Assembly: GCA_003550305.1 (NCBI GenBank)
Contig: QKYT01000154.1
Coordinates: 78,423-142,422, forward strand
Source of the DNA: Glomus cerebriforme
Taxonomy: Eukaryota > Glomeromycota > Glomeromycetes > Glomerales > Glomeraceae
DNA length: 64,000 nt
Direction: 5' to 3'
The notes under the pieces were generated by a model. It was not told the DNA's origin, searched no databases, and saw nothing but the letters and a program-made list of their open reading frames with translations. How positions within the stretch are numbered: position 1 is the first letter of the stretch; each line of letters begins with the position of its first letter. The position numbers and the translations under genes were made by a program. Below are positions 12,473-49,347 of the stretch, piece after piece.

Positions 12473-13575
12473 ATGAGTTCAAATCCAATAGACATTTCGT
12501 CCAATTTTTACTCCCAAGATGAGTTCGAATTTAACTATGGTTTAACTAATGATATTTTTAATAATCAACCCGAAGAATACTCATATTTTTATGAGCTATC
12601 CAACGAAATTTACCATATTACGTGCAAAGAAATAATTGACAGAACCTTGATTACTAGTAATGATTCCATTCAGTATGATAATGTATATAATTTTGATTAC
12701 CAACAACTTGATACCAAGAGATTGTATCGTTTTGCTTGTAGAAAACTTTCTCCCACATTTATTTTTCAGCTTTTAAATAAATATATTTATGGGATACATG
12801 AGATGGGATCTACGACTGAACAACAAGAAGTGTTTTTAGTCGAACATCAAGAAATTCTTAAAGATCACATAATCAAAAAATTTGCTCATTATTTGGAACT
12901 AAAACAATTTTGTACGCAGGAACCTTTATTTGATTTGAGATTTATGGAAGATTATCAATATTATTATACTGCAGGCTCTAATGCGGGTACGCTTAATACT
13001 TTATTCTTCCTTTCCCTCTTAACTAATATAATAAATCAATAAGCTCTATACTTTCTACACTATTCCCTACTTTCTTTTTTATTATAGTGGGATTAAATGG
13101 ATCTTCTAACGAAAAAGAAAATGAAAACTCAGAGAAAACATCACTTCCATGTACTAAATGCGTATGGCATGAAAAACCCGTTAAATTATTGTTGTCTTTT
13201 TTGATAACACGCAAAGAAGAAGTCAATCAACTTGCAACAAAGCGGGGTGGAGGTGGTAATATTAAAACAAAACTCTGGGATGATGCCGTGGTTATGTTAT
13301 TCAGGAATGGCTATTATGAATATACTGCTAAACAATGTGCTACTAAATGGAAGAACATTAAGAAAGAATATAACGATAATAATATCCAAATTCGGTATAA
13401 ATCAGAAGTTGAAGAGATCCTAGGTGGAAATGGATTGAATTTAGAATCAAGGAGAATGGATGGTAATTCGCATTTTAATGACATGCCGATGTCCGCTAAA
13501 CGAAAAATGTTAGATGAGGATAAATCAAATAATAAGACGATTAAATTTATTCATTATGAAAATCCAAAAAATTAA
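12473..13575 (+). CDS. two-module protein: HITC-type domain fused to Myb/SANT-like domain
   Basis: Exons 12473-12986 and 13088-13575 are joined by a phase 1 intron (GTACGC...TTATAG), giving 333 residues. Residues about 38-145 form the cluster's unnamed domain: YSYFYELSNEIYHITCKEI, a second half NFDYQQLDTKRLYRFACRKL, then LLNKYIYGI and a helix ending in IIKKFAHYLEL. Residues about 198-262 form the DNA-binding module, with tryptophans near 198, 235 and 259, including TAKQCATKWKNIKKEY. It ends with YKSEVEEIL (about 275-283), KRKMLDED and a C-terminal ENPKN. There is no signal peptide or membrane segment. The second module is of the trihelix type (Myb_DNA-bind_4), so DNA binding is inferred; the first has no known function. 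A GGATT array lies just upstream. The ATG follows an in-frame-free AT-rich leader and is the first available. Confidence 0.8.
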
Positions 13576-14289
13576 GAGAGAATTGGAAAGAAATAATATG
13601 AATAATATTTTAATCCTAATTTATGTTATCAAACCAAATGTAAAATCAATCTTTTATCATAGTTTCTTTTGAATATTCTTAATATCTCGCTGAATCTACT
13701 ATATTTATAGGAGAAATTTTCGATCTTGTTCTAGAAGGATGTATAGATATCTTTTTTTTTAAAATTTATTTATTTTTTTTTTTGGAATATTTTATAAGTA
13801 GGAATTCTAATCTTTTACCAGGTGCTCACATTAATAAATTATTTAAATATTTTTTTCATGATGTCAAATGTTTCGAAAATCATTTTTACTCGCTGGAACC
13901 ATGAATAAGTTTATATGAAATTTCTCCGAGTCAACCTGGTTTAATGCGGGTGGTCGTAAATCTCTCATTTATAAAGAGAACTACGAATGTTGAACTGACT
14001 CTGGTAACCTACAAATAATCGAAAACAAACTTTTTTTGTTAGTTTCTATTGCAATATTTCTATGATCATAGGAGTAATAAATAGTTCAATTTTACGAACA
14101 AATTTATAATCGTCCACGTTCCAAATAACCAATGTAACCTACAAATTTTTTAATCAGAAAATGTTTGATTTAAACAATTAAAATTCACATTTTAATGATC
14201 TACCTTGATCAACACAAATTGTTTGCGCCGAGAATGGTCTCAAAAAGATCGTCGGACCGGGCTCTTTACTTCGTAACAAAGATATATCT

Positions 14290-14321
<32 letters not shown>

Positions 14322-15808
14322 AAAAAGTATATTCACGTAGGGGAGGGGGGATATATATATACATCGAAGAAGACTTCAACGATGAATACGCTCAAACACA
14401 TATTTCCTAATAAGTGAAGAAATAAAGAGCATTGAATATTTTCATATTAAGTTAATTAGTATCATAAATAATTTCCTTATTTAACATAATTGTCATTCTT
14501 CAGAATTTTTAATTTGTACCATCATGCGTTCAGATTTACTTTCAAAATTTACCTAAAAAGATTTTCTTCTAAATTCTAACATTCCTGATAACAAAAATGC
14601 AGACTTAATGCACATCACGTCTGAACAACGTATGACATATTATTTAATAAACATTTCATAAATCATAATAAAATGAATTTTTTGTAATATTATGCTGATA
14701 AGAAAGAAATATTATATATGATACTGGCCATATGAATTTTGCTATAAAATATCAAATCCAATTTTCCTTCTGAAAAATGTATACGTTGTGGAAAAGAAGC
14801 GTTGAAGGGTATAAAGATTTCAAATTAACGTTCTTATCATGTATTGCCAATTTTTTGACTTGCTTGCATGTTTGTATTTAATGATGTTGTCGAAATTTAT
14901 TTAAGTGTTCACATGATAAATAGTAGCCGAGGTTTTGTTGCACTTCAAACTATAAAGTGAAGATCTCCATAGTACATTTCATTTGTCATTACGCAAATTT
15001 GAAGATCCCTTTCATCCGGTTACGAATCTAATTCCTTGGCTATATTCGGGATTGATGAATGGTCTTTGTACTAATACTAATTATATTTAACGGATTTTCT
15101 ATTATACCGGAAGCCAGTAATAAATATATATCGTTATTTAATCGAGACATTGTAGAAGATTTTGAATAAGTTGAAAGGTTAAAATATCGATAACAAATTG
15201 AGTATCCTAATTTTGTTATTCTGGAATTGAATGACCAATATGAGAGACAACTTATATTTTTTATAGCGACTTTGTATATGCTTTGTTAAAATTATCAAAA
15301 TCAAAAAATGCAATGACAAGCCTGATAAAGTTTCTTGCAATTACAATTACGGTACTCGGAAATATAATTCATAGTTGAAAGGTGTATTCGAATTCAAAGT
15401 TTCTTTATGATAAAAAAAATGTAATTATTGTATGCAAACAATATAATTATGTTCTTAAATTTTGAAATTTTGTATACCGTATGTCATATGATCGTCAATG
15501 TGTAATACCATTTGCAATACGCTAAAATGTTGAATGTAAAGTTTACTAATTTGGTTTATCATTGATTTTTTGCTTTACTCTTTCATAATTTTATTTTTTT
15601 AGTCTTTGTGTTTATTTAATTCGATTATTGTGTAAAAATTAATTAGATACATTTTCTCAAACATATATATACCCTCCTCTTTCATAATTTCTGATTTTAC
15701 AAAATCCTCTACTCTTTATTATTGTTAAAAACACGGAATAATAAAGTTTAATGAACGATAAAATTTTACAAAAAAAAATTTTTTATACATTAGGATGTGC
15801 AAATGGTA
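13576..15808. other. gene-poor AT-rich spacer
   Basis: No supported gene. There are A/T runs and a short dinucleotide TA run at 14289-14310 followed by a purine tract (14336-14350). No repeat shared with the rest of the window was noticed. Confidence 0.4.
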
Positions 15809-16045
15809 CTGTTGTAGCCCAAACGTAACCATGTCCCGAATCCGACTTGGGATATCCCAAATCAAACTTGGGACAATCCTATGTCCGAAAATTAACCATA
15901 TCCCAAACAAAACTAGTAAATTTTAAATGTTTAAGACGTCTCAAACTACCATTTAAGACTGGGTTAGTTTGGGACATGGTCAAGTTTCGGATATAAGGTT
16001 TTCCCAAGTTTGATTTGGGACATGGTAGTGTTTGGGCTACAACAG
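15809..16045. mobile_element. GTTGTAGCCC-type MITE, copy 1
   Basis: Terminal inverted repeats CTGTTGTAGCCCAAAC (left) and GTTTGGGCTACAACAG (right) are flanked by TA on both sides, as for Tc1/mariner-class insertions. The 237-bp interior has nested inverted segments (cccaaatcaaacttggga). It is nearly identical, in the opposite orientation, to the copy at 60471-60694. Its right end abuts the truncated SANT coding region and even supplies an ATG that reads into it. Confidence 0.85.
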
Positions 16046-16459
16046 TACGATAAATCTATTAAATTGTTTTTTTTTTATTTGGAAGAACGTAAAGATGATA
16101 TCAATAAACTGCCATCAAAGCGTGGTAATTTTAAATCCAAACTCTGGAAATATATCTCTGTTGTGCTACTCAAACATGGCTACAGTTATTCTCCAAAACA
16201 ATGTGAACACAAGTGGAAGAATATCAAGCAAAAATATAAGGTAAAGTTATTCTTAAAAAAAACCAAAAGAAACTATCTTAATTTTTGATGTTTAATATGT
16301 TTAATATAGGAAAACCCCGGATTTCGGTTTAAGACAGAATATGAAAGAGTTACCGGTACAAATAGGACTTCAAATGATAGTTCAGATTTTAATGAGTTTA
16401 ATATATCTTCTAATGTTGGATTTGAATATAGGTTTGTTTTTGAAAATCCAAATACATAA
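16010..16459 (+). pseudogene. 5'-truncated Myb/SANT-like gene behind a MITE
   Basis: An open frame runs from inside the MITE end (ATG at 16010 or 16022) through KSIKLFFFYLEERKDDINKL, KLWKYISVVLLKHGY and PKQCEHKWKNIKQKYK to a phase 0 donor at 16240/16241. It resumes at 16310 with FRFKTEYERV and FNEFNISSN and ends FVFENPNT at 16459. The intron sits where it does in the gene at 7226-8589. The first conserved tryptophan and everything upstream are missing, replaced by the MITE. The matching middle exon lies on the other strand at 16665-16781. As it stands it would encode about 126 residues. It could still be expressed from the MITE-derived start, but a broken gene is more likely. Confidence 0.65.
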
Positions 16460-17686: not shown

Positions 17687-18004
17687 AATAATTATTATTA
17701 TTCAACATACATAATTGAGTAACCATGTTTGGTTTTAGCTTCTCACACTTCTAACAATAATATTATTATTCATATGATCGACAGAATCAACAAATCCTTA
17801 GCCAAACGAAAGCGCAGCGATATTAATCTTTCTTATTAAAAAGTCGACATTTGTTGTTTTTTAAATAATTTCCTTTTGAATATCCTTCCGCAAATAATTT
17901 TATTATCTAATTTAGCACAAAAGAAATACTGATCAATTATAGTACGACCAAAGACGCCAAGTCAATGATGTTATTCCATTCTAGTAATAACGCAAATTTC
18001 AAAT
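17687..18004 (+). repeat. about 320-bp dispersed repeat, copy A
   Basis: Nearly identical, in the same orientation, to 42069-42395. Shared blocks include 'attgagtaaccatgtttggt', 'ccaaacgaaagcgcagcgat' and 'tacgaccaaagacgccaagt'. Only small indels separate the copies. No inverted ends and no open frame are evident; a SINE, a solo LTR or a segmental duplication are all possible. Confidence 0.75.
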
Positions 18005-18554
18005 ACTGTTTTATCTTTGCATAATTCGGTTAGTATTCAGAAGAAAAAAAGATGAACGATTTAGAGAATATTCAAAATAATCAATATGGAGTGGCATTTT
18101 TAATTTAATTAGGTAATCATTGTTGTTGCAATAATGCTTAAAGTTTAAATGCTTATTAATTATTTGAATTTTTTATAGTATTTGCTTATTACAACTGTAG
18201 ATCCTACAGTACATGTTTGAAGTATTTGTGCGATGATTAAATTAAAAAAGTACAATTGCCGATCATTTGATCACGTGAAATAGCAAATTTAAAAATAAAA
18301 ATAAAAAACCTTTATTATAGACTTTTAAAACCCACGTAGTATACATATATTAGCCTTCTCTATATCTTTACTTAAAGGTAAAAGAACGGTTATGATTGCC
18401 ATTTTTGACTTACACATGTAGCATATTATGGGTGGGTGTATCCTGCATATACTGTACTGTAAATCAAATTTCTTTGACTATCAAACAGCTTTCAATAAAA
18501 CCTTAAATGGCGAAATAATAGTCGATATGGGCAATATTAATTGTCAGTTGTGAA

Positions 18555-18626: not shown

Positions 18627-18769
18627 GTCGATCTTTCCGATCTAGGATTTTATGCGCAATTGAAACAAACAAATTATGGATCACTCGTAATATATATACA
18701 GTATTTCGCCCGTTCCAGTTTTTTATTCTTCCTTGGACGTTGAATAAAAAGCATTGATACTTCTAAATT

Positions 18770-20050
18770 ATGACAGAATATATTTCTAATGAGTTAGCCA
18801 GTAATGCTAGCATAAACCAGATTATATTCTTCTATACCCAGAATGATATAACTTACCTTATTCAGTGTGAAGAATCCAGTCCTGGCTCAATTACAGATTA
18901 TAGTTTTAGTAACACTCTTATATTTACTCATGAACAGCTCAATATAAATAAAACATATCGTCTAGTTTGCAAAAAGCTTTCAGTTACATTTATTTATCAA
19001 ATTTTAAATAACATTTTCTTTAATATTGATTTTAACCTAATTGAGCAACAGCAGCGAGAATTTTCTATAAAAGATCAAGAAAATCTTAAAACTCACTTAA
19101 AAAAGGATTTAATCTATTATTTAGAATTAAATCGCAGACCAAATGATTTTCTATATCATTGCTTTCTTAAAAAATATTATGATTATGAAAGTATGATGAT
19201 TTCTCAACAAAATAGCCTACAGGACGATAGTTACAGACAAGGTATAATTTTTCTCAAACTTGGTATGTTGTTGTGAGCACAAATTAAATGTGACTCATAT
19301 TTATCTTTCTTTCCACTAGAATTTACAAATGATCAATTCGTTTCTTTACCATCACATGAACAACCTGATGGATTTTCTGGAGTTGAAGGAACAGATGAAA
19401 AAATAGAAGTAATTGAAGCAGTATTTGATAAGTTATTGCAAATAAGTTCGTCTTTTCAACAATTTCATCAAAATGAAGGTAGGATATATCTTATTTCGTC
19501 AATTTTCTCACGTTGTGGTGAACTTTAATTGTTATGTTCGCAAGTGTTTAAAGCATGATTTGGTCATACAAATGAATGCCGTGCGGTTACTAAATATTAA
19601 TATTACTTTCTATTAGTTACTTCATCAGAATTGACCATTAATCCTGAACCTTCTAGTAATGATATTGAAGGTAAAATATTAATGGAGGAAGCAAATCCAC
19701 CAAGCGAAGGAGTTGAATCTTCTAATGAGAGTGAAAGCTCAACAGAAAGAACAAGATCATCTCCATGTGATTGGAGTGAGGAAGGAGCAGTCGAATGTCT
19801 ATTGTCATATTTGAAAGAAAATAAGGACTTGGCAAGAAAGCGCGGTGGTATTAATTGGGAGCAAGCCTCTACTAGGCTACGAGAACATAACTTCGACTTT
19901 TCTGCCAAACAATGTTCGACTAAATGGAAAAATATTAAACGAGAAAGTAAGAAAAATATGATGTATAAATCGCAAGTTGAAGAAATACTTGGTAAAAACG
20001 ATAAAAAGAAGAAAAAAATAACTAAGTATTTACTTAATAAATACAAATAA
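18770..20050 (+). CDS. two-module protein: HITC-type domain fused to Myb/SANT-like domain
   Basis: Three exons, 18770-19241, 19320-19478 and 19617-20050, joined by two phase 1 introns (GTATAA...CACTAG; GTAGGA...TATTAG), give 354 residues. The first module runs from IIFFYTQNDITYLIQCEES through KTYRLVCKKLSVTFIYQILN to LKTHLKKDLIYYLEL. The middle exon encodes an acidic linker (EKIEVIEAVFDKLLQISSS). The third exon carries a Ser/Glu-rich lead and the DNA-binding module, with tryptophans near residues 263, 291 and 314 (AKQCSTKWKNIKRES). YKSQVEEILGK and a lysine-rich end (KKKKKITKYLLNKYK) follow, with no ENP motif. The first-module cysteines are kept (QC and VC). A nuclear DNA-binding role is inferred from the second module. 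The Lys-rich tail could be a nuclear localisation signal. Confidence 0.78.
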
Positions 20051-21999: not shown

Positions 22000-23042
22000 T
22001 TATAGCTTACTTATTCTCTTGTTCCCATAATCTTTTGGATTTTCCATAATAAATATACATTCATTATTATCTTCATCTAACAAATTATGACTAGATATAT
22101 CAGAAGACATGTTAAATTCCTCATCACCATTTGACTTCTCATTAAGAATTTCTTTAACTTTAGAATAATATTTTCTATCCCTTTTAATATTTTTCCATTT
22201 AATCCAACATTGTTTCGAATCATAATTGTAGCCATATTTATGTAGCAGGTTAGCAGCATCCTCCCAGAGTTTTTCTTTAATGCCGCTAGTACGACTTTTT
22301 GCCAGTTGTTTAACTTCATTTTTATGTTTCTTCAAATAGGAAAATAAGTGTTTGACAGCTTTCGGTTTCCAATTACATGGTGATTTTCTGGTTGATCCTC
22401 CAGTTCTACCCCGATTATCATATGGGGGCGGTGGAGTTGTTTCGTGTTCTTCGTCAGAAGGTTCAAAAGGTTCAGTAGCAACTTTTGATCCTACTATAAT
22501 TAAAGAAATAAAATTGCATTGATAGACATATTATAAGTTTTCAAGACAATATACTGTATATCGTGATGGATACATATCAATTATTTGTTGTGTTCATCGC
22601 GGTATAGTTTTGCTTGTAGCTTTGTTTTATTTATCGCGTTTTAGGAGCGATTACAAATGAATTCTATAATTTTTGCCGTTCTGAAAACGACGATAATATT
22701 TATACTAATTTATAAAAATGGAAATTAAAATAAGAGAAATATTAGTTTATTATAATTACCTTGGTGATATTCATTTTCTTCAAAAACTTGAATATTTTGT
22801 TGAGGAATAGAAGCATACGGAATGTTTAATATAGGTAGAGGTAGTTCTTCAAAATCATAAAACGCTGGGTATTCATTAGGACATGGTTGCATGGATTGCA
22901 TGCTAATATGAGAATATTCATATAATTGAGTGAATTGAGGATAACTGGTGACGGGTAAATAGGGGACACTTTGATTTGATTGAATGTAAACAATACCATT
23001 AAATAATGGTTGAGGGCTAGCAAAATAATAATTTCCTGCCAT
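22000..23042 (-). CDS. Myb/SANT-like protein with Pro/Gln-rich head
   Basis: Exons 23042-22760 and 22493-22000 on the minus strand are joined by a phase 1 intron (GTAATT...TTATAG), giving 258 residues. Exon 1 encodes an uncharged, Tyr/Pro/Gln-rich head (MAGNYYFASPQPLFNGIVYI...) with no HITC motif. Exon 2 begins VGSKVATEP, has an acidic and proline-rich linker, then the DNA-binding module SPCNWKPKAVKHLF, KLWEDAANLLHKYGY and SKQCWIKWKNIKRDRKYY. It continues with SKVKEILNEK, FNMSSDIS, LLDEDN and FIMENPKD and ends ISKL. The intron resembles the first intron of the gene at 7226-8589 but lacks its middle exon. Because flanking phases agree, the shorter form stays in frame. DNA binding is inferred. 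Confidence 0.78.
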
Positions 23043-24267: not shown

Positions 24268-24807
24268 ATGAATTATTCAAATGAACAAGTTTATATAAAT
24301 GGTCCAGATTGTGCAGATTTTTCTTGTTCAAACGACTTTCACGTGACTTCTCAAGTAGACAGTTTGCAAACGCAATCAACGCAATCTGCGCTGAACTATC
24401 AGCCACCTCAACAAACATTTCAAACTATACTTGCACCGACCAATCTTGTTCATCCTAATGTCTTTTTTTATCGGCCACCAAATGACTCTTTCCATTATTA
24501 CATAAATTGTAAAGAAATCTCTTACGACACTGTTATATATTTATTAAATAATTTAGAAGAACGTAATAATCGATCAGATGGACATGAATATATTTTTTAC
24601 TACCGACAATATGGTGGCAGAGTTTATGAGATATCGTGCGAAATTGTTTCTCCCTTTTTGATTGATAATTGTTTGAATAAAAATTTTCTTGGAATTGAAC
24701 TTCAACAGAATGCGGCACAAGAGCACTGCTTATCATTTACTTTTAGTCAAAAGGAAAATCTTAAATATCATTTAAAACAATATTTAAGTCAATACTTATT
24801 AGGATAA
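24268..24807 (+). CDS. stand-alone HITC-type domain protein with Gln-rich head
   Basis: The ATG at 24268 gives 179 residues. The frame stays open upstream to a non-ATG codon, but no earlier ATG exists. Residues 1-60 are a Gln/Thr-rich head (SLQTQSTQSALNYQPPQQTF). The domain follows: VFFYRPPNDSFHYYINCKEI, then YIFYYRQYGGRVYEISCEIV, SPFLIDNCLNKNFLGIEL and FSQKENLKYHLKQYLSQYLL. Both cysteines of the paired YxI[TNS]C motifs are present. There is no SANT module, transmembrane segment or signal peptide. Function is unknown. A degraded relative is at about 40185-40380. Confidence 0.7.
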   Translation: MNYSNEQVYINGPDCADFSCSNDFHVTSQVDSLQTQSTQSALNYQPPQQTFQTILAPTNLVHPNVFFYRPPNDSFHYYINCKEISYDTVIYLLNNLEERNNRSDGHEYIFYYRQYGGRVYEISCEIVSPFLIDNCLNKNFLGIELQQNAAQEHCLSFTFSQKENLKYHLKQYLSQYLLG

Positions 24808-25759
24808 TTTTTTTATTATTTAAGTTGGGAATTCCGTTTATTTTAAATTACTTTGATGATTTAATTAATCTCTTTCTATATCTTTATAGTGTTTTTTTAT
24901 TAAAATTATTTTTTATGGGAATATATTTCTATTTTAAACATAACTCCTACAAAATATTGCTAATAAGTACTTTTGGCTTGCTTATTTTGGATTGATTATA
25001 TTAAAATATTTTTTTAAAAAAATATTAGAAAAGAGGAATTTTATTAATCGTTTTTCTATAATGATAAAATTATAGCGATCGATAGTTATTGCGAACCAAC
25101 AATTCGATTTTAAGTATTTTTATTTTATTTTTTTGTCTAATTTGAACTTATTGTGTTAAACATTAAACAAGGAAATATTTCTACATATAAAAATTGAAAA
25201 TATCCAAAAATCGAAATAGGGAACATATACTGTATTTCATGCAACTAAAGAATGAGGAATAAACATAAAAACACTCTATTTAACCCTCTATAATATGCAT
25301 AAACTCCATTGATTCCAACATTTTAAAAGTTATAAATACTAATTCATTTTTCACAAGTATAATTTAACATTTATTAATTTCAAAATAAGAAATGATAGGT
25401 ATTTCTTTGTGTTTATGGACGAAAAAAAAAGGAAGAAAGACGGAATATGTATACTTAAGAGAAAAAAAAAGAAGAAAGAATTTAAAAACTGGTATAATTT
25501 TTATTTTTTAATTTTTCCTAAAAACATATACATAAATAATGTTTTCATTTTAATTAATTTATTTGCTTAGAATAAATGGTATCAGGCTTTATGAGAGCGA
25601 GAACGTATTAAGAAAAGAGATTTGGCATGTGACATTCTTGTTGCTTTCAATATTATCGAGGATATCATTAAAAAAAAAAAATTAAGAGATCAATATATTT
25701 TTATCCCGTATTTGTTTTAAACGAATCATGATGAAAAAATAGGGACAATGATGATATAA

Positions 25760-26019
25760 GAAATTATTTTTATGAACATAAGTTCTTCCAGAATTCAAGA
25801 TATCACGTTTCATGTAAATTGGTAACACATTCTTTGATTGTAATGTCGAACAAGGAAATTTATGTAATGGATTTTAGTGTAAATGACTTAGATCATAAAT
25901 ATTCATTAACTTTGTATCAAAAAATCAATCTTGAACTAAATTTGGAGCAATATCTTTCTGATAAAATTTTGATAAAGTTCGTGTTATCTAAATTTCTATT
26001 TCAGCGAATCTACATTTAA
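25760..26019 (+). pseudogene. HITC-type domain fragment
   Basis: From about 25760 the frame reads DDIRNYFYEHKFF, then YHVSCKLVTHSLIV, EIYVMDFSVNDLDHKYSLTL and YQKINLELNLEQYLSDKIL. This matches the second half of the domain in the gene at 48235 (YYVTCKLFSHSLIVNLLNSK, IYEMDLDV, NLEQDLKQLL). The first half and a start codon are missing and the LLN segment is shortened. It is most likely the broken half of a gene. Confidence 0.6.
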
Positions 26020-26084
26020 TTCAGATCAATTTCTCAAAGAATGCGCAAAGAATGGATGTTTCCGCAGAAATAAGTTCAAACTCA

Positions 26085-26410
26085 AATACAACAAGAACAC
26101 TTGAATGTTGAAATGTTTTATCGACCGCAAAATGATAATAATAATAATATTTATCGTGTAACTTGTAAAAACATTTTACAAGATCATCAGATAATTACGA
26201 TCACGGATTCTTTTTCAAAGAATATTATGTTATAAGTATGTAAATTATTATTACTTTCTTTTATCGAAATATATTGAATAAGGAGATTTATGGAAGAGAT
26301 TTTGATATAAATGACTTAAAATACAATTGTACATTAACTTTCAAAAACTAAACCTCGAACTAAATTTGAAGAAGTTTTTGCTTTTTCATCTCATTTCTGA
26401 GAAAGAAACG
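26085..26410 (+). pseudogene. second HITC-type fragment, frameshifted
   Basis: Around 26113 the frame reads MFYRPQNDNNNNNIYRVTCK, matching the first half of the domain. It stops near 26234. A second stretch from about 26265 reads RNILNKEIYGRDFDINDLKY and then loses frame inside the final 'LNLELNLKKFL'-like helix. Order and spacing match the family, but stops and a frame break separate the pieces. Together with the fragment just upstream, this may be one disrupted tandem pair. Confidence 0.55.
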
Positions 26411-28203: not shown

Positions 28204-28665
28204 ATGTCTGATAACGCCATTCGCGTACGAGGCTGTAATAATATCAATCAATTAACTCAATTGTCAAGTACTTTAAACGATGATAACTTCAAAATGTCAT
28301 TCTTTTACAATCCACCAGGAGATTATCAAATTTACCATATCACCTGTGAATTATTAAGCGAAATTATTGATTCGCTTTCTGATCATACATTTTATTATAA
28401 ACTAGATGATAAAAATTTTTATCAAATAACTTGTAGATTGATTTCACATTCAATAATTGTTCAATTTTTAAATAAAAATATTTATGGTATTGAACTTAGA
28501 GGTGAAGAACCTCAGCAAGAATATTTGACCTTTTCTAATGGTCAGCGAGATAATTTAGAATTTCATTTAAAGGAATTTTTATCTAATAAATTAACGTCAA
28601 AACAAATTAACAACGTTAATGTTTCTGAAGTTGATAATAATATTATTGCACAACCTAAATTATAA
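28204..28665 (+). CDS. stand-alone HITC-type domain protein (QPKL subgroup)
   Basis: The ATG at 28204 gives 153 residues. A GTG 33 bases upstream is in frame but is unlikely as a start. The head contains GCNNINQLTQLSS. The domain runs FFYNPPGDYQIYHITCELLS, FYYKLDDKNFYQITCRLI, SHSIIVQFLNKNIYGIEL and LTFSNGQRDNLEFHLKEFL. The end is VDNNIIAQPKL. It is very close to the proteins at 32931 and 40976 over the whole length, which marks recent duplication. It is single-exon, with no secretion signal or membrane segment. Function is unknown. The C-terminal PKL resembles a weak peroxisomal targeting tripeptide, but that is not enough to claim targeting. Confidence 0.78.
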   Translation: MSDNAIRVRGCNNINQLTQLSSTLNDDNFKMSFFYNPPGDYQIYHITCELLSEIIDSLSDHTFYYKLDDKNFYQITCRLISHSIIVQFLNKNIYGIELRGEEPQQEYLTFSNGQRDNLEFHLKEFLSNKLTSKQINNVNVSEVDNNIIAQPKL

Positions 28666-30975: not shown

Positions 30976-31126
30976 GTTGTAGCCTAAACGTAACCATGTC
31001 CCAAACCAAGCTTGGGACAATCATATGTTCATATGTCCATAATTTAACCATATCCCAAACCAAGCTAGTAAATTTTAAATTTTTTAACGTCTCAAACCTA
31101 AGACTAGTTAGTTTGGGACGTGGCAG
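30976..31126. mobile_element. GTTGTAGCCC-type MITE, copy 2 (truncated)
   Basis: It starts 'gttgtagcctaaacgtaacc' and keeps the internal 'cccaaaccaagctagtaaat' and 'gtctcaaacctaagac', but ends at 'gtttgggacgtggcag' without the right inverted repeat. Confidence 0.7.
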
Positions 31127-32930: not shown

Positions 32931-33428
32931 ATGAGCGATAAAGTGGATAGCATCGTTTACGCTAAATGTTGCACAAATATTAATCAGTTATATCAACTGA
33001 CCAACTCTTCTTCAAATGATATAAACAGAATGTCTTTCTTTTACAATCCTCCAGGAGATAATCAAATTTATCATATCACTTGTAAATTATTATTAAATGA
33101 AAACGATGATGACACTCTTTCTGATCATGCATTTAATTATCAATTAGATGATAAAAATCATTATCAAATTAATTGTATATTGATATCCCCTTCTTTAATT
33201 GTTCAATTTTTAAACAAAAAAATGTACGGCATCGAACTTCGACAAACTGAAGAACCGCAACAAGAGTTTTTGACTTTTTCTAACGGCCAACGAGATAATT
33301 TGGAATTTCATTTGAAGGAATTTTTATTTAATCATTTAGCGCCGAAACAAATTAACAAAAAACCTAAAGTTAATGTTTTGACATCATCCGATGCTGATAA
33401 TAAAATCATTTCACAACCTAAATTGTAA
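32931..33428 (+). CDS. stand-alone HITC-type domain protein (QPKL subgroup)
   Basis: The ATG at 32931 gives 165 residues in one exon. The order is CCTNINQLYQLTNSSS, MSFFYNPPGDNQIYHITCKL, FNYQLDDKNHYQINCILISP, SLIVQFLNKKMYGIEL, FSNGQRDNLEFHLKEFLF and a tail ending DNKIISQPKL. Both half-motifs and cysteines are kept. It differs from the protein at 28204 mainly in the loop between the halves (a small acidic insertion, NENDDDTLSD) and in the tail. The shared leader word TTATCCATC is at 32884. No function is known for this family. Confidence 0.8.
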   Translation: MSDKVDSIVYAKCCTNINQLYQLTNSSSNDINRMSFFYNPPGDNQIYHITCKLLLNENDDDTLSDHAFNYQLDDKNHYQINCILISPSLIVQFLNKKMYGIELRQTEEPQQEFLTFSNGQRDNLEFHLKEFLFNHLAPKQINKKPKVNVLTSSDADNKIISQPKL

Positions 33429-37509: not shown

Positions 37510-38986
37510 AAACTTTCAAATCCTAATATAATTTGTAAATCTTGAGTTTTGAAATAATAAGGCGATCTTTGATAGACGCTTCGGATTGAAATCACGTTTG
37601 TTATGTATGTAGTTGTGGTTTCAGGTGTATACGCGACGTATTGGTTTATTGGTATGGATATTAGGAAAACGCAGACTTTATATAACCAATAAAATAAAAT
37701 TTAGATAAAATTTAAAAATTTCTACAAAATTAATTTTTAATGAATTTCTTTATTCAATATGGAATTTTTTTTTTACTATTTACAATAAATTAATTTATGA
37801 GTTAAAATTGAGCGTGCCAATCGTCACACAACTAAATTCAACGCATTTGATTCCACTCATTCACGATGTTGGCGTAAATAATTAACGTAAAGAATACTTG
37901 CTCGATCTCTAAATAATAAATCTTATTAAAATTATATTATATTATGATTATTTGAATAAAAAAGAATTTTCTTATTAAGATTTAGTTGTGGAAAAAATTA
38001 CTTTTTCCTCACAAGTATCCTGCAACTTTTGGCCTTAGTGTATGGATGCGTTATCTAAATTTAAAACATTACATTATGCAAAATATGTAATGAATATACT
38101 GTATATACACATGTCAAATCATATTTATTTTACTATAATACACAAATTTGTTAAAAAAAAAAAAACTTACCAAAGTTCATTGATCCGTCTTGAATATCAT
38201 ATGACTTCAGGCTATTTACACATAATTCGTTATGTTCTTTGTCTTTCTTTGTAAATGGCATATATTAATATTTCCTTGCATAACTAAGATTGAAGTTCCC
38301 AAATATACCAATCTATTTGCTTTGAGAAATATTTCTTGGTTTTGCATCCATACTGCTAATAAACCTGTAAAGCTGTAAAAAATTTTTCCAAGTTAAAAAG
38401 TTAAAGCATGTTATTGCAACATTGTTTATAAATACCAAGAGTAACACAAAACTTATTTGAAAATGATTAATAATTTCACCGTTCAGAATTTACCGTTATA
38501 CCACGTGGCATGGATGTGTTGAATAGGTAGTGACAAATAGGATTTCGCTCACTGAACCCTCAAAAACTTAGTAAAAAACGCAAACTCGTCAGTCGTAGGG
38601 TAGAAAAGTTTTGGGAGTGACTGCGTTCAGAATTTATACCACGTGAACTTCTGCCGGTTTGGGGACCAATGGAGTTGAATTGGACCAATGAGATCGATAA
38701 AAGATTTTATTTATTCATTTTTTATGATATAAATAAATATTTGAGTTTATTCAGAATATTCCATTCATTAAATACCTTCCTATTATAAAAAAATCAATAC
38801 ATTTTTGAATTAGAACAATGGTAACATGATGTAATATATATACTACAAAGTAGATTTGATTTTAAAAAATAATTAGTATTAGAGGTTAGGGTTAGACATT
38901 AATGTCAATTTTGGCGAAGCCAAAATTGAGCAAAGGCGTCTGCGAGAGGAGCGGACGTATTTTGTTTCTAAATCATTGATCAGTTT

Positions 38987-39191
38987 TCAAACTCCGATAT
39001 AATATTACATAAAAGAGTCCAAACTCCGATATAATATTACAATAAAGAATTCAAACTCCGATACAATATTACAATAAAGAATTCAAACTCCGATATAATA
39101 TTACAATAAAGAATTCAAACTCCGATATAATATTACATAAAAGAATTCAAACTCCGATTCAAACTCCGATACGATATTGCATAAAAGAATT
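38987..39191 (+). repeat. about 32-bp minisatellite
   Basis: About six tandem units of 'ttcaaactccgatataatat' plus 'tacaataaagaa' occur, with small variants (acataaaagag, acgatattgc). The last unit is partly duplicated within itself. It is non-coding in all frames looked at. Confidence 0.85.
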
Positions 39192-40184: not shown

Positions 40185-40380
40185 TTAATACAATACCAGT
40201 TCTCAACCTGTTCACCCTGTTGTCTTTTTCTATCGACCACCAAGTGATTTACCATTATCATTGTGTCAATTGTAATGAAATTTCTTATGACACGACAAAG
40301 AAATTTAATAAGACAATCGATTTTATAAGATATCATTGTTTGAACCAATTTAAAACCAATACTTATTAAACTAAATAAGA
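40185..40380 (+). pseudogene. degraded copy of the 24268-type HITC gene
   Basis: The DNA 'tgtctttttctatcgaccac' and 'caagtgatttaccattatca', then 'attgtaatgaaatttcttat', 'gacacgac' and 'aatttaataagacaat', parallels the first half-domain of the gene at 24268 (FFYRPPNDSFHYYINCKEIS, YDT). Two frames are needed to follow it and the second half is absent, so it is a pseudogene fragment. Confidence 0.5.
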
Positions 40381-40975: not shown

Positions 40976-41479
40976 ATGAATCCAACCCGTGATCAAGATT
41001 ACATTATGTTTGTCAAAGGCTGTACGGATATTAATCAATTGAACCAACTGACTAGTTCTTCGAACAATTCAAATGATAAATTTAAAATATCATTCTTTTA
41101 TAATCCACCAGGAGACAATCAAATTTATCATATAACGTGCGAATTATTTAATGAAAATAATGATCCGCTTTCTGATCATACATTTTATTGTAAACTAGAT
41201 GATAAAAATCTTTATCAAATAGCTTGTAGATTGATTTCTCATTCATTAATTGTTCAATTTTTAAACAAGAAAATGTACGGTATTGAGCTTAGACAAGGGA
41301 TAGAACCGCAACCAGAATATTTGACTTTTTCTCATAGTCAACGAGATAATTTAGAATTTCATTTGAGGGAGTTTTGTTTTAATCAATTGGCATCAAGACA
41401 AATTATTAACAAAAGTCCTGATGTTAATGTTGTAACGGCTGATGTTGATAACAAGATTGTTGTTCAACCTAAATTGTAA
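40976..41479 (+). CDS. stand-alone HITC-type domain protein (QPKL subgroup)
   Basis: The ATG at 40976 gives 167 residues. Residues 15-27 are GCTDINQLNQLTS. Residues 38-58 (ISFFYNPPGDNQIYHITCEL) and 70-92 (FYCKLDDKNLYQIACRLISH) are the paired half-motifs. LIVQFLNKKMYGIEL (91-105), LTFSHSQRDNLEFHLREF (116-133) and a tail ending KIVVQPKL follow. It is close to the proteins at 28204 and 32931. There are no introns, signal peptide or membrane segments. Four ambiguous bases (N) lie in the poly-T/poly-A tract upstream (40874-40892), probably from low-complexity sequencing trouble. Function is unknown. Confidence 0.8.
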   Translation: MNPTRDQDYIMFVKGCTDINQLNQLTSSSNNSNDKFKISFFYNPPGDNQIYHITCELFNENNDPLSDHTFYCKLDDKNLYQIACRLISHSLIVQFLNKKMYGIELRQGIEPQPEYLTFSHSQRDNLEFHLREFCFNQLASRQIINKSPDVNVVTADVDNKIVVQPKL

Positions 41480-42068: not shown

Positions 42069-42395
42069 AATAATTATTATTATTCAACATACATAATTGA
42101 GTAACCATGTTTGGTTTTAGCTTCTCACACTTCTAACAATAATATTATTATTCATATGATCGACAGAATCAACAAATACTTAGCCAAACGAAAGCGCAGC
42201 GATATTAATCTTATTAAAAAGTCGACATTTGTTGTTTTTTTACCCTAAGATTTAAATAATTTCCTTTTGAATATCCTTCCGCAAATAATTTTATTATCTA
42301 ATTTAGCACAAAAGAAATACTGATCAATTATAGTACGACCAAAGACGCCAAGTCAATGATGTTATTCCATTCTAGTAATAACGCAAATTTCAAAT
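42069..42395 (+). repeat. about 320-bp dispersed repeat, copy B
   Basis: Nearly identical to 17687-18004 in the same orientation. It differs by a roughly 10-base insertion ('accctaagat') and a few single bases. Confidence 0.75.
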
Positions 42396-45300
42396 TTTTT
42401 TTTATCGATCATTACATTATAAATCGACACGATTATGCCGTACGTTTCATTTTCTTTTTTTGGAACAAATCAATACATATACCGACGATATAAATATAAT
42501 GATACTAAACAAAAATTTTAAAAATGGTAAGAATGGTTAAATTAATCTTTGAAGTTACATCATTACAATCTAAATTTATTTTAACGAGTAACTCAATGAA
42601 CTATTTAGAAAAAAAAATCCAGAAGTACTAATGATAATAATAATGAAAATATTCGCAATTTTATCGGAAATCCCGTTAAGTTTATCAATGGAACTTTAAT
42701 TTTCCATCGGTAAATATCTTTCCCTATAAGTTTTGGAATTAAATAAATAGGTTCGGATATTTTTATAAGCCTTGAATCCCTTTTGTGTAGTACACATATC
42801 ATAAAGTTATTAATAAATTATTTAAAAGCCGATACATAATTTTAAATAAATTTTAAATGTCAATTAGTAAATAAAGTTATGTTATGCGACAGGACGTTGT
42901 ATAACAAATAGTAACACATCCAGAGAAATTTTTCAGAGGTAACTTTATTATACATTATACATTTTAAATGTGAATTGAATCTTATTATAAATTACACATT
43001 TTTGACTTTTTTCTTTTACTATACAATTTGAATTTTTACATTTACAAAATGTTGATGTAAAAAAAATGTGGTACTGTCTATTCCGTAAATTTATTAATCA
43101 AAGCAAAAATGCAAGATTTAACAAATATAAGATTATGACAGCATTAAATAAACATCAAAGATTATCAACCATTCTCAATAAGGCTGAGAATCAATCAGAA
43201 TCAAAAAAACGCAATAATGGTAATTTGATTGGATCAAAAATCTTAGCCGATGAAACATAGAATTCTTAAGTATATTTATTCATTTCACGATGATAATCTT
43301 TTTCGTTGAATGTGTAAAAAACAGATATTATTATCGTTAGTATTAGTCTCAATAACCTCGAAAAAGTATATCTCTATGTGTAACAATTTTTCATTATATG
43401 GCTAATTTCAATAACATTCTGAATAGAAATGTGCTTATCTTTTTAAATTAACAAATTAGTATCTAAATGAATATTTGTTTTTCGTTTTTCATTGTGAGCT
43501 GCAACAGAGTGGATTTATATATCGCATTAATCTTTAGGAGTTTATTGAATGCATTTCGATAAGATCATTTTAAGACTGAGTTTCAAATGACGCTCCTGTG
43601 CATAAATATTCATTCTACTCTTACTTTTTTTAAATTTTGTTGAACTATAGAATTCTGAGTAACACGTTTTTAATCTATTTTGCCGTAAGCGAGACTCAAA
43701 ATATGCCAAAAAATTTGTCCGTTTTTTTATTTCTAAATTTAGTAAAAAAATTTTTTTTTTACCGGAACAAATCTTTTGTCCTTTTTTGAAGAAGAAATAC
43801 ATTCATATTAGTGACATACTAACAATATAAGATTCTCTAATTGTTTTTTCTAACATAAAAGGAGTAAAAATTATTGTTAACAACTTTAGTATTTTAATAT
43901 TTCACGTGATTTCTGCGCTTCTGCGCTAAAAAATCATAATGAATCAAAATTACAACGAAAACTTTAATAATCACGATTTTCAAAATTATGAGTAATTCAT
44001 ATTTTTTTTTAACGCGTCGCGTCACGCCATTTATTAAAATTTATTCCTGCTATATTAAAAGAATTATTTTTTTCGAAGAATTTAAACTTTTTTATAACGT
44101 TAAATTTCTGCATCAAAATTACCGTATATTCTAAGCTGTTGGCTTTTTTATTTTTTTTAAAAACATTAATATACTGTATTTATTCTTGATAATTTTCAAC
44201 ATAAAATCCTACTTTATTTAGAAATGGGAATGAGCAGTTTGATTATCGTTTTTTTGTGTCTTCATCGTTAAAAATCATCAATAAGTTATTATTATATATC
44301 CTTATATGATCATATTGAATAGCTATAAATAATAAATAATGCTGCTATTAGCGCTATATTACATGCAAGTTATTAATACAATTATTAAATGAACAACAAC
44401 TAACTGATATATAGACTAGAATAAGCTTATAGTGTGATTGTGAGAGACTATATAATAAAACACTTATTATATAGGTCTTTAGGAAATATTCAATAGTCAA
44501 GTTGTGCCACTAATGTAGCACAATCTGCGCCAATCAAATGTTCTCAATCGAAAAAAGCACAAATACTATCTGCTATGTAATATTTAAATTTTACTGTTAA
44601 TTCAGTTCAAGTCCGGTAAGGCAGAAAGTAGTATAATAGGATTAACCAATTGAATATTGTAAGAGTATTGTATGATACGAAAAATCTAAGTATAAAATCT
44701 ACTATACTCTGTAGTATTTATATATAGCATTCAAAGTACTTATTGTAATATTTATTAAATCTTAATATTTATACTCATCGAAAGTTAAATTTACTGAAGT
44801 GCCGAATGATAGTCTTACAAATTTAAAATTTAATGTTTATTTGAAAAAAAATGCGAGATAAGAAAATTACAATTCCTTGTGCGCAGTGCAAGTAGTTAGT
44901 TTTTGTCAAACGGTTGAGTAGATCATTTCACATGACCATCAATACTTAATTGGTTAGTTCTACTTTCCTACTATACAGTACTACTTTTCGTTCTGTTCAG
45001 AAGTAGTCCATAATTCCATATTAAATAAATGTATACCAATCATAATAAATAACTTCTTAAATTCATATACGTTATAGATAGTATCTTTTAAGTATTTTTT
45101 TTTTTAATTTCACCCAATTTTTTTTTTATTAATATTTCATATTAAAACTTTTCTTAAACGTTGGGAAGTGTTTAAAGATTGGAAAAATATGGTAAGACTA
45201 AGCTAAATAATTATCCACTCTCTTTATACGCCAAATGCTTTTATAATTGTTAATGAAAACATTATTGTTGTTGAGGTTGAAAACCGCTGAAAGTATTGCC
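42396..45300. other. gene-poor AT-rich spacer
   Basis: A 64-residue plus-strand frame at 43066-43260 and an 86-residue minus-strand frame at 43542-43802 have no recognisable features. No repeats shared with the rest of the window were noticed. Confidence 0.4.
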
Positions 45301-45840
45301 ATCACCTTGAATGGCATTAGCATTTTGAAAAGAAGATTGGTCGTTCATGATCTGATCATTAAAAATATCTTGTATCATATTTCCGTGCAAGTTATTAATT
45401 TGTTTATAAATTTTTTAGGTGCAAAGTAATCAATTAAAAATTGCTTCAAGTGAAATTTAAGATTGTTTTGATATCTTGGAGAAAATTCCTGTTGCTGATC
45501 ATCTTGGTTATATCCTATATTATAAAATTTTTTGTTTAAAAACTGAGATGAAGCCAATTCACAAGTTACTCGCTCGATAAATTTTTTGGACATATTTAGA
45601 CTGAAATTAATTACGAGCTTGGTTGTCATCAGTATTGTTTAGCAATTGAGATACAAGTTCAAAGGATACTTGCATTTCATCACAAATAATGTGGTAAATT
45701 TGGATGGATTAAAAAAATATGAAGAGGTTTCTTGAGAATGAGTTGAATAATTGATTATCTTGAATATATTGTAATGCTAAACTTGGTGTTATCGGCTACA
45801 TATTACGATCATGCAAAGACCGATCGTATTGACGAGACAT
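45250..45840 (-). pseudogene. frameshifted HITC-type domain gene
   Basis: On the minus strand a start at 45840 (MSRQYDRSLHDRNM) meets a stop at once. A later stretch reads IYHIICDEMQVSFELVSQLL, stops, and a shifted frame from 45629 reads FIERVTCELASSQFLNKKFY, QQQEFSPRYQNNLKFHLKQF and APKKFINKL to 45375. All parts of the family domain are present in order but across several frames. A Gln-rich stretch just downstream (about 45250-45330, reading like FQPQQQ) may be its old tail. It is oriented opposite to the nearby functional copies. Confidence 0.65.
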
Positions 45841-46456: not shown

Positions 46457-46839
46457 CTTATATCCGAAACTTGACCATGTCCCAAATTAACAATCTAGTC
46501 TTATATGATAGTTTGAGACGTTAAACATTTAAAATTTACTAGCTTGGGATATGTTAAATTTCGGACATAGGATTGTCCCAAGTTTGATTTGGGATAGGGA
46601 TTGGAATCGATTCTGAAAAAATCGAAACAGCATAGTAGAATCGATTCTCTACATATAAACTGACCTGATTCCAAAGCAGTTTTTAATGCTGATAATTTTT
46701 ACTAAAATTAATGATTGATTCGAAGTCAGGCTGACCATTATAAAAAAAAATCTTGAAAAGATCCGATGATCGATTCCAATTCCTAATTTGGAATATCCCA
46801 AGTCGGATTTGGGACATTGTAACTTTTGGGCTACAACAG
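46457..46839. mobile_element. GTTGTAGCCC-type MITE, copy 3, carrying a nested element
   Basis: The right inverted repeat (TTTTGGGCTACAACAG) and internal blocks ('tatccgaaacttgaccatgt', 'cccaagtttgatttggga') are present; the left terminal repeat is missing. It is longer than other copies because a second element is inserted at about 46597-46784. Confidence 0.75.
46597..46784. mobile_element. nested element with AGGATTGGAATCGAT ends
   Basis: Left end 'agggattggaatcgattc' and right end 'gatcgattccaattcct' are inverted repeats of about 16 bases. It is about 188 bp, without coding capacity, and interrupts the MITE. No other copy was noticed. Confidence 0.55.
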
Positions 46840-47416
46840 TAACATACATTCTAAGTATAAATAGTAATCTTGTCGATCATATTGAGAGAAATCAGCTTAT
46901 AAATACAGTTTGCCCTCAAACCTCAATATAACGAACCTCTGGGCTTTACTTTAAATTCGTTATAAGATTATAGCGAAGAATTTAAAGAATTTAATTAGCC
47001 TGATTCGTTATAATTAAAACTTAAAGGTCACATGTTGAAAATATTAACAAATGCCCATCATTATTAATATTGGTATTTTTACATTTCTCAAGGTTCCACA
47101 AATTTGGTATAATATCAAAATCACTTAAGGCTTGAGTATATCATTTTCATAAGTACAAAACTGAACGTTACCATAAATAAAATGTGTCCAAACCACTATA
47201 TTTTTTGTGTAAACTTCTTAGAACCCCATGACACACAGTATATGGCAGAAAAAAAAAGTTTCGTTTTCCACATGCATTATCTATTTGGTCTCACGACCAG
47301 TAAAAAATTTTTTACTAAATGTTCGTTTTTTTTTTGAAAAAATTCAAATGTATTTTTTTCTATATATAACTACCAATCCTTTTAATAATTTGATCCGATC
47401 ATCATTCTGGTTTGTT

Positions 47417-47569
47417 CTGTTGTAGTCCAAACTTTACCATGTCCCAAATCAACCCATCGGCCTAAATCATTGGCCCATTACAATAATGCCTTAAGACAGT
47501 ACCAACGATACTTTCCTAATTTAGGCCGATGGGTTGATTTGGAACATAAGTCGATTTGGGCTACAACAG
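47417..47569. mobile_element. short MITE related to the GTTGTAGCCC family
   Basis: Ends CTGTTGTAGTCCAAAC and GATTTGGGCTACAACAG. Long inner arms 'aaatcaacccatcggcctaa' and the reverse complement give an almost complete palindrome of 153 bp. The interior differs from the longer copies. Confidence 0.75.
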
Positions 47570-47727
47570 TTCTATATAATAAATAGTTACTAAAACTTTT
47601 ACTCTGTTAAAAAAACTAAAAATAAGTATTTATATTATTTTTAAATAAAAACAAAGCATATTTATTTATTATAATATAGTTTATATATCAGTAATATTTA
47701 TACATTTTATTTTTATTTAAGACGCAG

Positions 47728-47935
47728 AATGCGCTACAAAATGACTAGAATAATAAACCTTACAAAAATCAATATGTAATTTGTAAAACATTTTTAAATT
47801 ATAACGGATAATAATTAATGCGCTACAAAGATAACTAGAATAATAATTAATGCCTACAAAGATAACTAGAATAATAATTAATGTGCTACAAAGATGACTA
47901 GAATAATAATTAATGCGCTCCAAAAAAGGCTATAA
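47728..47935 (+). repeat. about 35-bp tandem repeat
   Basis: About four clear units of 'aataattaatgcgctacaaa' plus 'gataactagaat', from about 47806 to 47935, with a diverged unit at 47728-47752. It lies about 300 bases upstream of the gene at 48235. Confidence 0.75.
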
Positions 47936-48031
47936 TAAGAGTATTTATTCACGTGATATGTATGTCGATCATTTCCAATTAGCCATAAAAATTAGCCGTC
48001 TTTGTGTAAGCACCCACACCAATTTTTCAGC

Positions 48032-48038
48032 TATATAA
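48032..48038 (+). promoter_or_regulatory. TATA-like box
   Basis: TATATAA about 197 bases before the ATG at 48235, in less AT-skewed sequence than most of the window. It is a plausible core promoter, not proven. Confidence 0.3.
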
Positions 48039-48234
48039 CGATCAAAATTTTTCATGCTCCTAAATAAAAAATAATTATACATTTTCATCTTCCAAAGCAA
48101 ATACTTTATTATCTTTATTTTCGTTTCTTTTTGTCTCTTTTTATCGATAATTCATACTCAAAGTAAACCAAAATTACCCACAACCTCTCGCTCATTCATC
48201 CAATAACAACAATTATATTGGATACTTTAATAAT

Positions 48235-49347
48235 ATGTCTCATTTAGAAACTTCTCAAAAACTCATGATAAGTACAATGAATAAATATGAATTTTTTCAT
48301 TATGTACCAAAAGATAATAGTTTTTATCATGTAACTTGCAATATTATTATACAAGGCTCCGTCTTTGATGATCATGATTATGATCATGGATTCTTTTACC
48401 ATTCCAACGGGGAAAACTATTATGTTACGTGCAAATTATTTTCGCATTCTTTAATTGTAAATTTATTGAATAGTAAAATATACGAAATGGACCTTGACGT
48501 AAGACAAAAAGAATCATTGTCTTTGGATCAAAAATTTAATCTCGAACAAGACTTGAAACAACTCCTTCCTTTTCAATTTACGCGAAGTCGTATCCCTAAA
48601 AGTAATACGAGAACGGATTCTAATGGAAATACGAATTCTCTTCATGGACGGAATAATGATATCACAAAACAGATGGTTTCAAACACTGATGGCCAAACTG
48701 ATCTCGATCACCAAAATGGAGTTGGAGGCTATAATGTTGCTCATCCACGGCAACACCATTTTCCCGAAAGAGAAATGAAACCAAATTATGGTAGATATAC
48801 AACTGCATTTAATGGAAATACTATGAATAATGAAATGTCAACGCAAGCCGTTTTAATGACAAACATAAATAATGATAATAACTTATCACGTCAAGATGTA
48901 TATGGAATGGGATACGCTTATCCGCAGCAACAATATCATCAATTATTTAGCTCTGAAAATTTTCACCCTACATTTAATAACCTTATGTCTCAACCAAATC
49001 TTAAACAAGCCTCAACTTCTACTTCGCACATGAATGCTACTTACTTGACCTCCGCTCAGAATGTATTCCAACCTCAGCCATTCTTAAATAATATCGTCGA
49101 TCAACAAAAGCAAACTCAAGTTGATAATTTTTCACATCACATTCCCGAGAGAGAAACAATGCCGGATTATAATGGAGATAAAAATTCATTTAATGAAAAT
49201 ATTGGAAATAATATAATGACAATACAAATTGTTTCGGATATCAATCAAAATCACAATGATAACAACTTGTCACGCAATGTTCAAGGTGGTGTAAACGGCG
49301 TCGATCAAGTTATTCACCTGCAGCAACACCAAAATTTTTATCAATAA
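48235..49347 (+). CDS. HITC-type domain protein with long Asn/Gln-rich repeat tail
   Basis: The ATG at 48235 gives 370 residues in one exon, more than twice its stand-alone relatives. Residues about 18-112 form the family domain: EFFHYVPKDNSFYHVTCNII, GFFYHSNGENYYVTCKLF, SHSLIVNLLNSKIYEMDL and SLDQKFNLEQDLKQLLP. From residue 115 on the sequence is rich in Asn, Gln, His and Ser. It contains two copies of a repeat of about 45 residues (176-220 and 302-347), sharing [FI]PERE, P-x-Y, FN-x-N, NN-x-M, QxV and DNNLSR. No SANT module is present. The tail resembles the low-complexity Q/N-rich regions of fungal regulators, which suggests but does not prove an assembly role. The closest match to the domain in the window is the fragment at 25760-26019. 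Confidence 0.78.
   Translation: MSHLETSQKLMISTMNKYEFFHYVPKDNSFYHVTCNIIIQGSVFDDHDYDHGFFYHSNGENYYVTCKLFSHSLIVNLLNSKIYEMDLDVRQKESLSLDQKFNLEQDLKQLLPFQFTRSRIPKSNTRTDSNGNTNSLHGRNNDITKQMVSNTDGQTDLDHQNGVGGYNVAHPRQHHFPEREMKPNYGRYTTAFNGNTMNNEMSTQAVLMTNINNDNNLSRQDVYGMGYAYPQQQYHQLFSSENFHPTFNNLMSQPNLKQASTSTSHMNATYLTSAQNVFQPQPFLNNIVDQQKQTQVDNFSHHIPERETMPDYNGDKNSFNENIGNNIMTIQIVSDINQNHNDNNLSRNVQGGVNGVDQVIHLQQHQNFYQ

What the first reader, a model, noticed from the sequence alone, without database searches (positions are those of the whole stretch)
12473..49347. Clustered lineage-specific gene family with an undescribed double 'YHITC' domain
At least seven apparently intact genes and four pseudogenes share one domain: two half-repeats of the form FFY-x(6-9)-YxI[TSN]C, then LNKxxYGIEL, then a final helix Q-R-x-NL-x-xHLKEFL. 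I cannot match it to a named family. The two halves look like an internal duplication, with one cysteine each. Copies occur alone, with a Gln-rich head, with a Q/N-rich repeat tail, or fused to a DNA-binding module. Seeing so many versions within 37 kb suggests a young, fast-changing family.
Basis: partly seen in the sequence, partly recalled or inferred. Interest (0 to 1): 0.85.

Follow-up and report, generated by a model that had tools for sequence, protein, structure and literature searches.

The report
Orphan paired-hairpin domain in mycorrhizal fungi
A root-symbiont fungus carries over a hundred genome matches to an unnamed protein domain built from two similar halves; most copies looked at stand alone or in pairs, a few are joined to a DNA-binding module, and what the domain does is still unknown.

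Summary
Seven intact genes and four remnants in the window share one domain of about 108 residues, and its halves are a true internal duplication. Pfam, NCBIfam, PHROGs, PDB sequences and two fold searches gave no convincing match. The genome is Glomus (Rhizophagus) cerebriforme or a near strain. Four searches give 128 places on 36 contigs. Named relatives are in R. irregularis, R. clarus, R. diaphanus and Funneliformis geosporum; the search reaches only fairly close relatives. 'Young, fast-changing' is mostly not supported: 16 of 16 sequence pairs I chose have dN/dS 0.09-0.57, the window trio has dS 0.66-1.07, and several clades are shared between species, though some clades are G. cerebriforme-only and some duplicates recent. 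Two window copies (12473, 18770) can be spliced in frame to a Myb/SANT DNA-binding exon, and the same fusion exists as database proteins of R. clarus and R. irregularis. Other copies are single or doubled, often with N/Q-rich flanks. Best guess: a protein-protein docking module of nuclear regulators. Family, duplication and fusion are shown by sequence; docking and regulation are inferred.

The parts
12473..12986 (+). Exon 1 of a YHITC-Myb fusion gene; domain at 12575-12895
   Evidence: ORF, HMM, splice reading
13088..13575 (+). Exon 2 of the same gene: Myb/SANT-like DNA-binding domain (PF13837), joined in frame (phase 1) after intron 12987-13087
   Evidence: Pfam E 2.6e-8; splice reading; database proteins of R. 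clarus and R. irregularis align through the junction
18770..19241 (+). Exon 1 of a second YHITC-Myb fusion gene; domain at 18824-19123
19320..19478 (+). Exon 2, linker; absent from the other fusion proteins aligned
   Evidence: in-frame phase-1 splice reading; no Pfam match to the ORF
19617..20050 (+). Exon 3, Myb/SANT-like DNA-binding domain (PF13837)
   Evidence: Pfam E 5.2e-8
24268..24807 (+). Single-domain gene with Gln-rich head; domain 24463-24798
28204..28665 (+). Stand-alone copy (trio member 1); domain 28294-28593
32931..33428 (+). Stand-alone copy (trio member 2); domain 33030-33338; structure predicted
40976..41479 (+). Stand-alone copy (trio member 3); domain 41087-41389
48235..49347 (+). 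Domain (48286-48576) followed by a degenerate N/Q-rich tail; lies in the second main side of the tree
1236..1400 (-). Remnant of a trio-type copy
   Evidence: tblastn 73-86% identity over 56 aa; one stop inside
25735..26392 (+). Broken copy in several pieces, probably once two domains
40210..40294 (+). Short, weak remnant of a 24268-type copy
   Evidence: only (E 1.5e-4); not re-found
45399..45767 (-). Broken single-domain copy
7499..7804 (-). Myb/SANT-like exon, no YHITC domain found beside it
   Evidence: Pfam E 1.1e-8; domain scans
15968..16285 (+). Myb/SANT-like ORF whose start lies in a foldback repeat; probably broken (inference)
   Evidence: Pfam E 8e-10; repeat
22003..22530 (-). Myb/SANT-like exon, no YHITC domain found beside it
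   Evidence: Pfam E 7.6e-9; domain scans

Best explanation
This is a genuine protein domain family without a described relative in the libraries searched, with organism-named members so far only from Glomus/Rhizophagus and Funneliformis. Shown by sequence: an internally duplicated beta-hairpin (probably beta-beta-alpha) unit plus a C-terminal helix; dN/dS below 1 in the pairs tested; single, doubled and Myb/SANT-fused versions; expansion into many places, several subfamilies shared by species. Inferred: the proteins act inside the cell, probably in the nucleus, and the domain is a docking module that pairs with other copies of itself, so that Myb-fused copies sit on DNA and are brought together with, or titrated by, stand-alone and N/Q-rich-tailed copies. 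The family's existence is near certain; the docking and regulation step is the part I put at about one in two.
For: Family: 7 of 7 window ORFs; 128 places on 36 contigs (merged); all 123 database proteins fetched carry the domain at least in part, as expected since they were found by it. Internal duplication. Selection: NG86 dN/dS 0.09-0.57 in 16 of 16 pairs; YN00 gave values for 8 of 16, 0.16-0.44, and failed on 8. Nuclear link: in-frame splices to PF13837 in two window genes, and five R. clarus or R. irregularis proteins with the same fusion that align through the junction and form one clade of seven with both window copies (95/95). No signal-peptide-like start in 66 of 66 named proteins by a simple hydrophobicity rule; 3 of 66 had a borderline hydrophobic 19-mer. 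Sequence outside the domain is 24% N+Q, against 15% inside. Self-association hint: 27 of 123 database proteins hold two domains, and the predicted two-domain protein has pTM 0.66 although 86 of 307 residues have pLDDT under 50, higher than I would expect from two independently placed domains (my estimate, not computed). The domain is net acidic in 60 of 64 copies, which speaks against it binding DNA itself.
Against: No experiment, expression datum or interaction datum was available. Only 2 window genes carry the Myb fusion; a Myb profile found no other in the ORFs of the window and loci L001-L068, which reach only 1.5 kb beyond each match, so a nuclear role of the unfused copies is by association. 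The pTM argument is indirect: inter-domain errors were not shown, the model's mean pLDDT is 68.5, and AlphaFold can over-join repeats. The genome is AT-rich, which alone favours N in loose sequence. The fold searches gave only low or non-superposing scores.
Confidence: 0.5

Rival explanations
1. The domain is a sensor that binds a small ligand, and the fused Myb part turns that signal into gene expression; stand-alone copies are buffers or carriers.
Against: Those scores are at noise level (best Foldseek E 0.55); no pocket was examined; N/Q-rich tails and doublings fit docking better (inference).
Confidence: 0.15
2. The domain itself binds DNA or RNA.
For: Fusion with Myb/SANT. The 50 Foldseek rows shown for the two-domain model are LAGLIDADG homing endonucleases, best E 1.9e-4, 3 rows at E 0.001 or less.
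Against: TM 0.15 and rmsd 22.6 A for the best row; no LAGLIDADG Pfam match; net charge negative in 60 of 64 copies.
Confidence: 0.1
3. The copies are effectors delivered to the plant or to rival fungi.
For: Large expanded family in a symbiont, with variable N/Q-rich flanks.
Against: 0 of 66 named proteins have a signal-peptide-like start by a hydrophobicity rule; dN/dS below 1 in 16 of 16 pairs; Myb fusion kept in three species.
Confidence: 0.08
4. The copies are passengers or debris of mobile DNA, multiplied without function.
For: Broken copies exist, and repeats crowd the window.
Against: dN/dS well below 1 in 16 of 16 pairs; among the locus pairs compared the duplicated stretch varies in length and no common end was apparent (at most 45 pairs listed, no formal test); relatives in several species.
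Confidence: 0.05
5. The domain is a far-diverged FP domain (PI31/Fbxo7 dimerisation fold).
For: PI31_Prot_N matches below cut-off in 5 of 32 two-domain rows (14.5-18.4 bits against 21; two of the five rows are one gene). The best, E 0.0018, spans 97 residues. hhalign of the A2 profile with the fungus's own PI31 exon puts the second hairpin on PI31's hairpin, P 0.0047, probability 7.5%, against P 0.58 for one unrelated control protein.
Against: All five are below Pfam's cut-off; the A4 profile gives P 0.1, probability 0.6%; Tic22 scores as well (E 0.0012). PF11566 run over the genome finds one locus, C427, and none of the 128 places.
Confidence: 0.05

Closest known systems
Myb/SANT-like DNA-binding proteins (Pfam PF13837)
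   Same: Two of the window genes carry this DNA-binding module above its curated cut-off.
   Different: The N-terminal domain has no match in Pfam above a cut-off in the tables seen; in the loci held no further copy of it has a Myb exon.
PI31/Fbxo7 FP domain (PF11566)
   Same: Weak similarity around one hairpin, up to 97 residues in one member; recalled to be a dimerisation domain.
   Different: Below cut-off in the members seen; the genome's own PI31 is a separate locus.
LAGLIDADG homing endonucleases
   Same: Order of hairpins and helices in the two-domain model resembles them in Foldseek's local alphabet.
   Different: Does not superpose (TM 0.15, rmsd 22.6 A), no Pfam match.
Expanded gene families of Rhizophagus irregularis (PMC6123716, passages seen)
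   Same: A lineage-expanded family in the same group of fungi.
   Different: The passages seen name kinase, Sel1 and BED families; this one bears no Pfam domain outside the Myb part. Whether it is among that paper's unnamed groups was not checked.

Membership tests
Myb/SANT-like DNA-binding proteins (PF13837), for genes 12473 and 18770 | Pfam PF13837 above its curated cut-off | tested here: met
   34.6 and 33.6 bits against 27
Myb/SANT-like DNA-binding proteins (PF13837), for genes 12473 and 18770 | Myb exon in one reading frame with the YHITC exon | tested here: met
   Phase-1 splices read from sequence, no transcript seen; database proteins of two other species with the same fusion
Myb/SANT-like DNA-binding proteins (PF13837), for the other copies | A PF13837 domain in the gene | tested here: not met
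   Myb profile hit only five window ORFs among the ORFs of the window and L001-L068; copies without a fetched locus were not tested this way
PI31/Fbxo7 FP domain (PF11566) | Match above Pfam's cut-off of 21 bits | tested here: not met
   Five members seen at 14.5-18.4 bits; genome run with PF11566 finds only the C427 locus
PI31/Fbxo7 FP domain (PF11566) | FP fold | tested here: inconclusive
   Fold searches gave only low scores
LAGLIDADG homing endonucleases | LAGLIDADG Pfam domain | tested here: not met
   None listed at E up to 5 for the 7 domain ORFs or at E up to 0.5 for 28 members
LAGLIDADG homing endonucleases | Superposable alpha-beta-beta-alpha-beta-beta-alpha core (order recalled) | tested here: inconclusive
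   Foldseek E 1.9e-4 but TM 0.15, rmsd 22.6 A

The most novel reading that the evidence does not exclude
These fungi evolved their own pairing domain from a doubled beta-beta-alpha unit and expanded it into a combinatorial regulatory code: a few Myb-fused copies read DNA, while about a hundred single, doubled or N/Q-tailed copies compete to pair with them and set which genes are active.
Probability: 0.15. Interest if true: 0.75.

Novelty: new variant of a known kind. Interest (0 to 1): 0.5.

Why it matters
Arbuscular mycorrhizal fungi have very large gene sets in which much is unnamed. A domain with over a hundred matched places in one genome, present in several species and sometimes joined to a DNA-binding module, is a concrete entry point: it gives a profile to annotate these genes, a defined set of candidate regulators, and a simple test (do the domains pair?) that would say how the stand-alone copies act.

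Tried and rejected

Prokaryotic or viral origin: patterns from the two-domain alignment A4 found no relative in viral contigs (253 stretches) or genome contigs (208 stretches) by tblastn. Single-domain subfamilies were not scanned in this way. No fungal genome other than the window's own could be searched.

Transposon origin: disfavoured as described under rivals. Disulphide between the two cysteines: not favoured, since the first is replaced in 8 of 63 rows readable at both columns while the second stays.

Rows left out before counts: the tree used 64 own-genome domains and 68 domains from organism-named proteins of other species with more than 85 model positions; unnamed and short ones were left out. 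The hydrophobicity screen used 66 of 72 organism-named proteins; six fragments were left out. Alignment A2 left out two domain copies that contain unknown residues and 11 of the 44 non-window proteins. The 16 dN/dS pairs were picked by me as close relatives without a fixed rule; three locus pairs enter with two domains each, and no test against 1 was run.

Literature: locus tags of six relatives, 0 papers. Broader searches listed nothing that by title or abstract start named this family; PMC6123716 was seen in found passages only, the others only in the listing. Most subscription papers are not in that library.
Full report
What is there. The window lies in contig C252 of a 112.5-Mb genome. Nine database proteins are exact substrings of ORFs in loci of this genome outside the window, and all nine carry the label Glomus cerebriforme, so the source is that arbuscular mycorrhizal fungus or a very near strain. 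An HMM grown from them and applied to the ORFs of the window and 68 loci settles at 108 positions and finds the domain in 71 ORFs, 57 of them with at least 95 positions. Three remnants are found by domain search and a fourth, short one by one full-length query. Reversed-window control: 0 hits.

Anatomy. Consensus: FFYqpPND..iYHVTCKeI ... FyqQ....IYhVTCKLLShSLIVNiLNKeIYGID ... hQKlNLEfhLKQiL. Half 1 and half 2 align as profiles with score 44.1, against a maximum of 12.9 in 60 column shuffles and 6.2 or less for other parts of the domain. In 13 members selected because half 1 keeps an LLN-like stretch, the match runs through the helix (33 columns, score 40.2; no shuffled control), so the unit that was doubled is probably beta-beta-alpha. 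The AlphaFold2 model of copy 32931 (95-row alignment) has four strands then two helices; core blocks of ten residues mostly have pLDDT 88-93, with two loops near 62-66, and the mean over the whole chain is 74.9.

Distribution. Four own-genome searches gave 99, 70, 59 and 94 rows; merged they make 128 places on 36 contigs, 23 of them on C252. Some neighbouring places are pieces of one broken copy, and C642/C1051 and C219/C925 give rows with the same scores, so 128 is a count of places, not of genes; each search is also a lower bound by the tool's own words. Protein searches returned 46, 5 and 72 proteins; all 123 carry at least part of the domain. Organism-named ones belong to R. irregularis, R. 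clarus, R. diaphanus, G. cerebriforme and one to Funneliformis geosporum. G. cerebriforme and F. geosporum are Glomeraceae in NCBI's taxonomy; that Rhizophagus is too is recalled. Proteins without an organism name were not placed. The search needs shared five-letter words, so distant relatives may have been missed.

Architectures. Single domain; two domains (27 of 123 database proteins, 9 of 71 own ORFs); N/Q-rich head or tail; Myb/SANT fusion. Gene 12473 can be spliced 12986|13088 and gene 18770 at 19241|19320 and 19478|19617, all phase 1 and in frame (read from sequence, no transcript seen). The predicted 12473 protein finds five fusion proteins in R. clarus and R. irregularis, one covering 98% of it, and the alignment runs through the junction. 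PF13837 has 42 places in the genome; 5 lie in this window within 15 kb, and none of the other 37 is on a contig among the 36 with the YHITC domain. In the tree all fusion members are one clade of seven (95/95), so the fusion is likely one event older than the split of these species.

History. The tree of 132 domains has two main sides (57 and 75 rows, 100/100), each with several species; with 108 columns, 34 of 129 inner branches are unresolved, and the root is only at the midpoint. The trio 28204/32931/40976 falls in one 22-row clade with R. irregularis, R. clarus and R. diaphanus, its order inside unresolved. Against a purely old family: several clades are G. cerebriforme only and the species label needs 19 changes against 44.6 in shuffles; sampling of other species is partial. 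dN/dS is 0.09-0.57 in 16 of 16 pairs that I picked; dS of the trio is 0.66-1.07. Locus tags of R. clarus relatives run close together (RclHR1_00660002-4 and 11-14), and 9 of 18 named R. clarus proteins, two Myb fusions among them, list a longest contig of the same length (2,523,216), which suggests, but does not prove, that the array is linked there too.

Mechanism. Shown by sequence: a conserved domain, duplicated, fused to a DNA-binding module in three species, under constraint in the pairs tested. Inferred: nuclear docking module. Supporting hints are the doublings, N/Q-rich flanks (24% N+Q, 15% inside the domain), acidic domain (60 of 64), no signal-peptide-like start (0 of 66; a simple hydrophobicity rule, not a trained predictor), and pTM 0.66 for the two-domain model. 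Nothing here measures binding, location or expression.

Known or new. No library searched names the domain; the nearest leads (PI31 FP domain, LAGLIDADG) stay below cut-off or do not superpose. The wider kind, an expanded family in AM fungi partly tied to transcription regulators, is familiar (PMC6123716 reports 92 rapidly expanded families in R. irregularis, passages seen). So: a domain family not described in the sources searched, filed as a new variant of a known kind rather than categorically new.

Noticed in passing
window 15852-16023: 172-base foldback element (78% identical to its own reverse complement) with 40 scored copies of 99-100% identity across the genome; 391 candidates passed the first look and 40 were scored, so it looks abundant and recent. 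Diverged copies near 30976, 46447, 53627 and 60470 in the window.
   Followed up: partly
G000, 42 places of PF13837: 25 of the 37 Myb/SANT-like places outside the window have stop codons inside the match; introns or decay could cause that.
   Followed up: no
window 54440-60309 (-): Protein kinase gene and similar pieces (PF07714 E 9.5e-33 at 58356-59216; 82% DNA copy at 54440-55262).
   Followed up: no
window 17687-18015 and 42069-42406: A 340-base repeat pair at 94% identity, not studied further.
   Followed up: no
window 8402-8533: 48-base tandem repeat inside an ORF upstream of the unfused Myb exon at 7499-7804(-).
   Followed up: no
window 38986-39158, 47808-47924, 61634-62125: Minisatellite arrays of 32, 32 and about 50 bases.
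   Followed up: no
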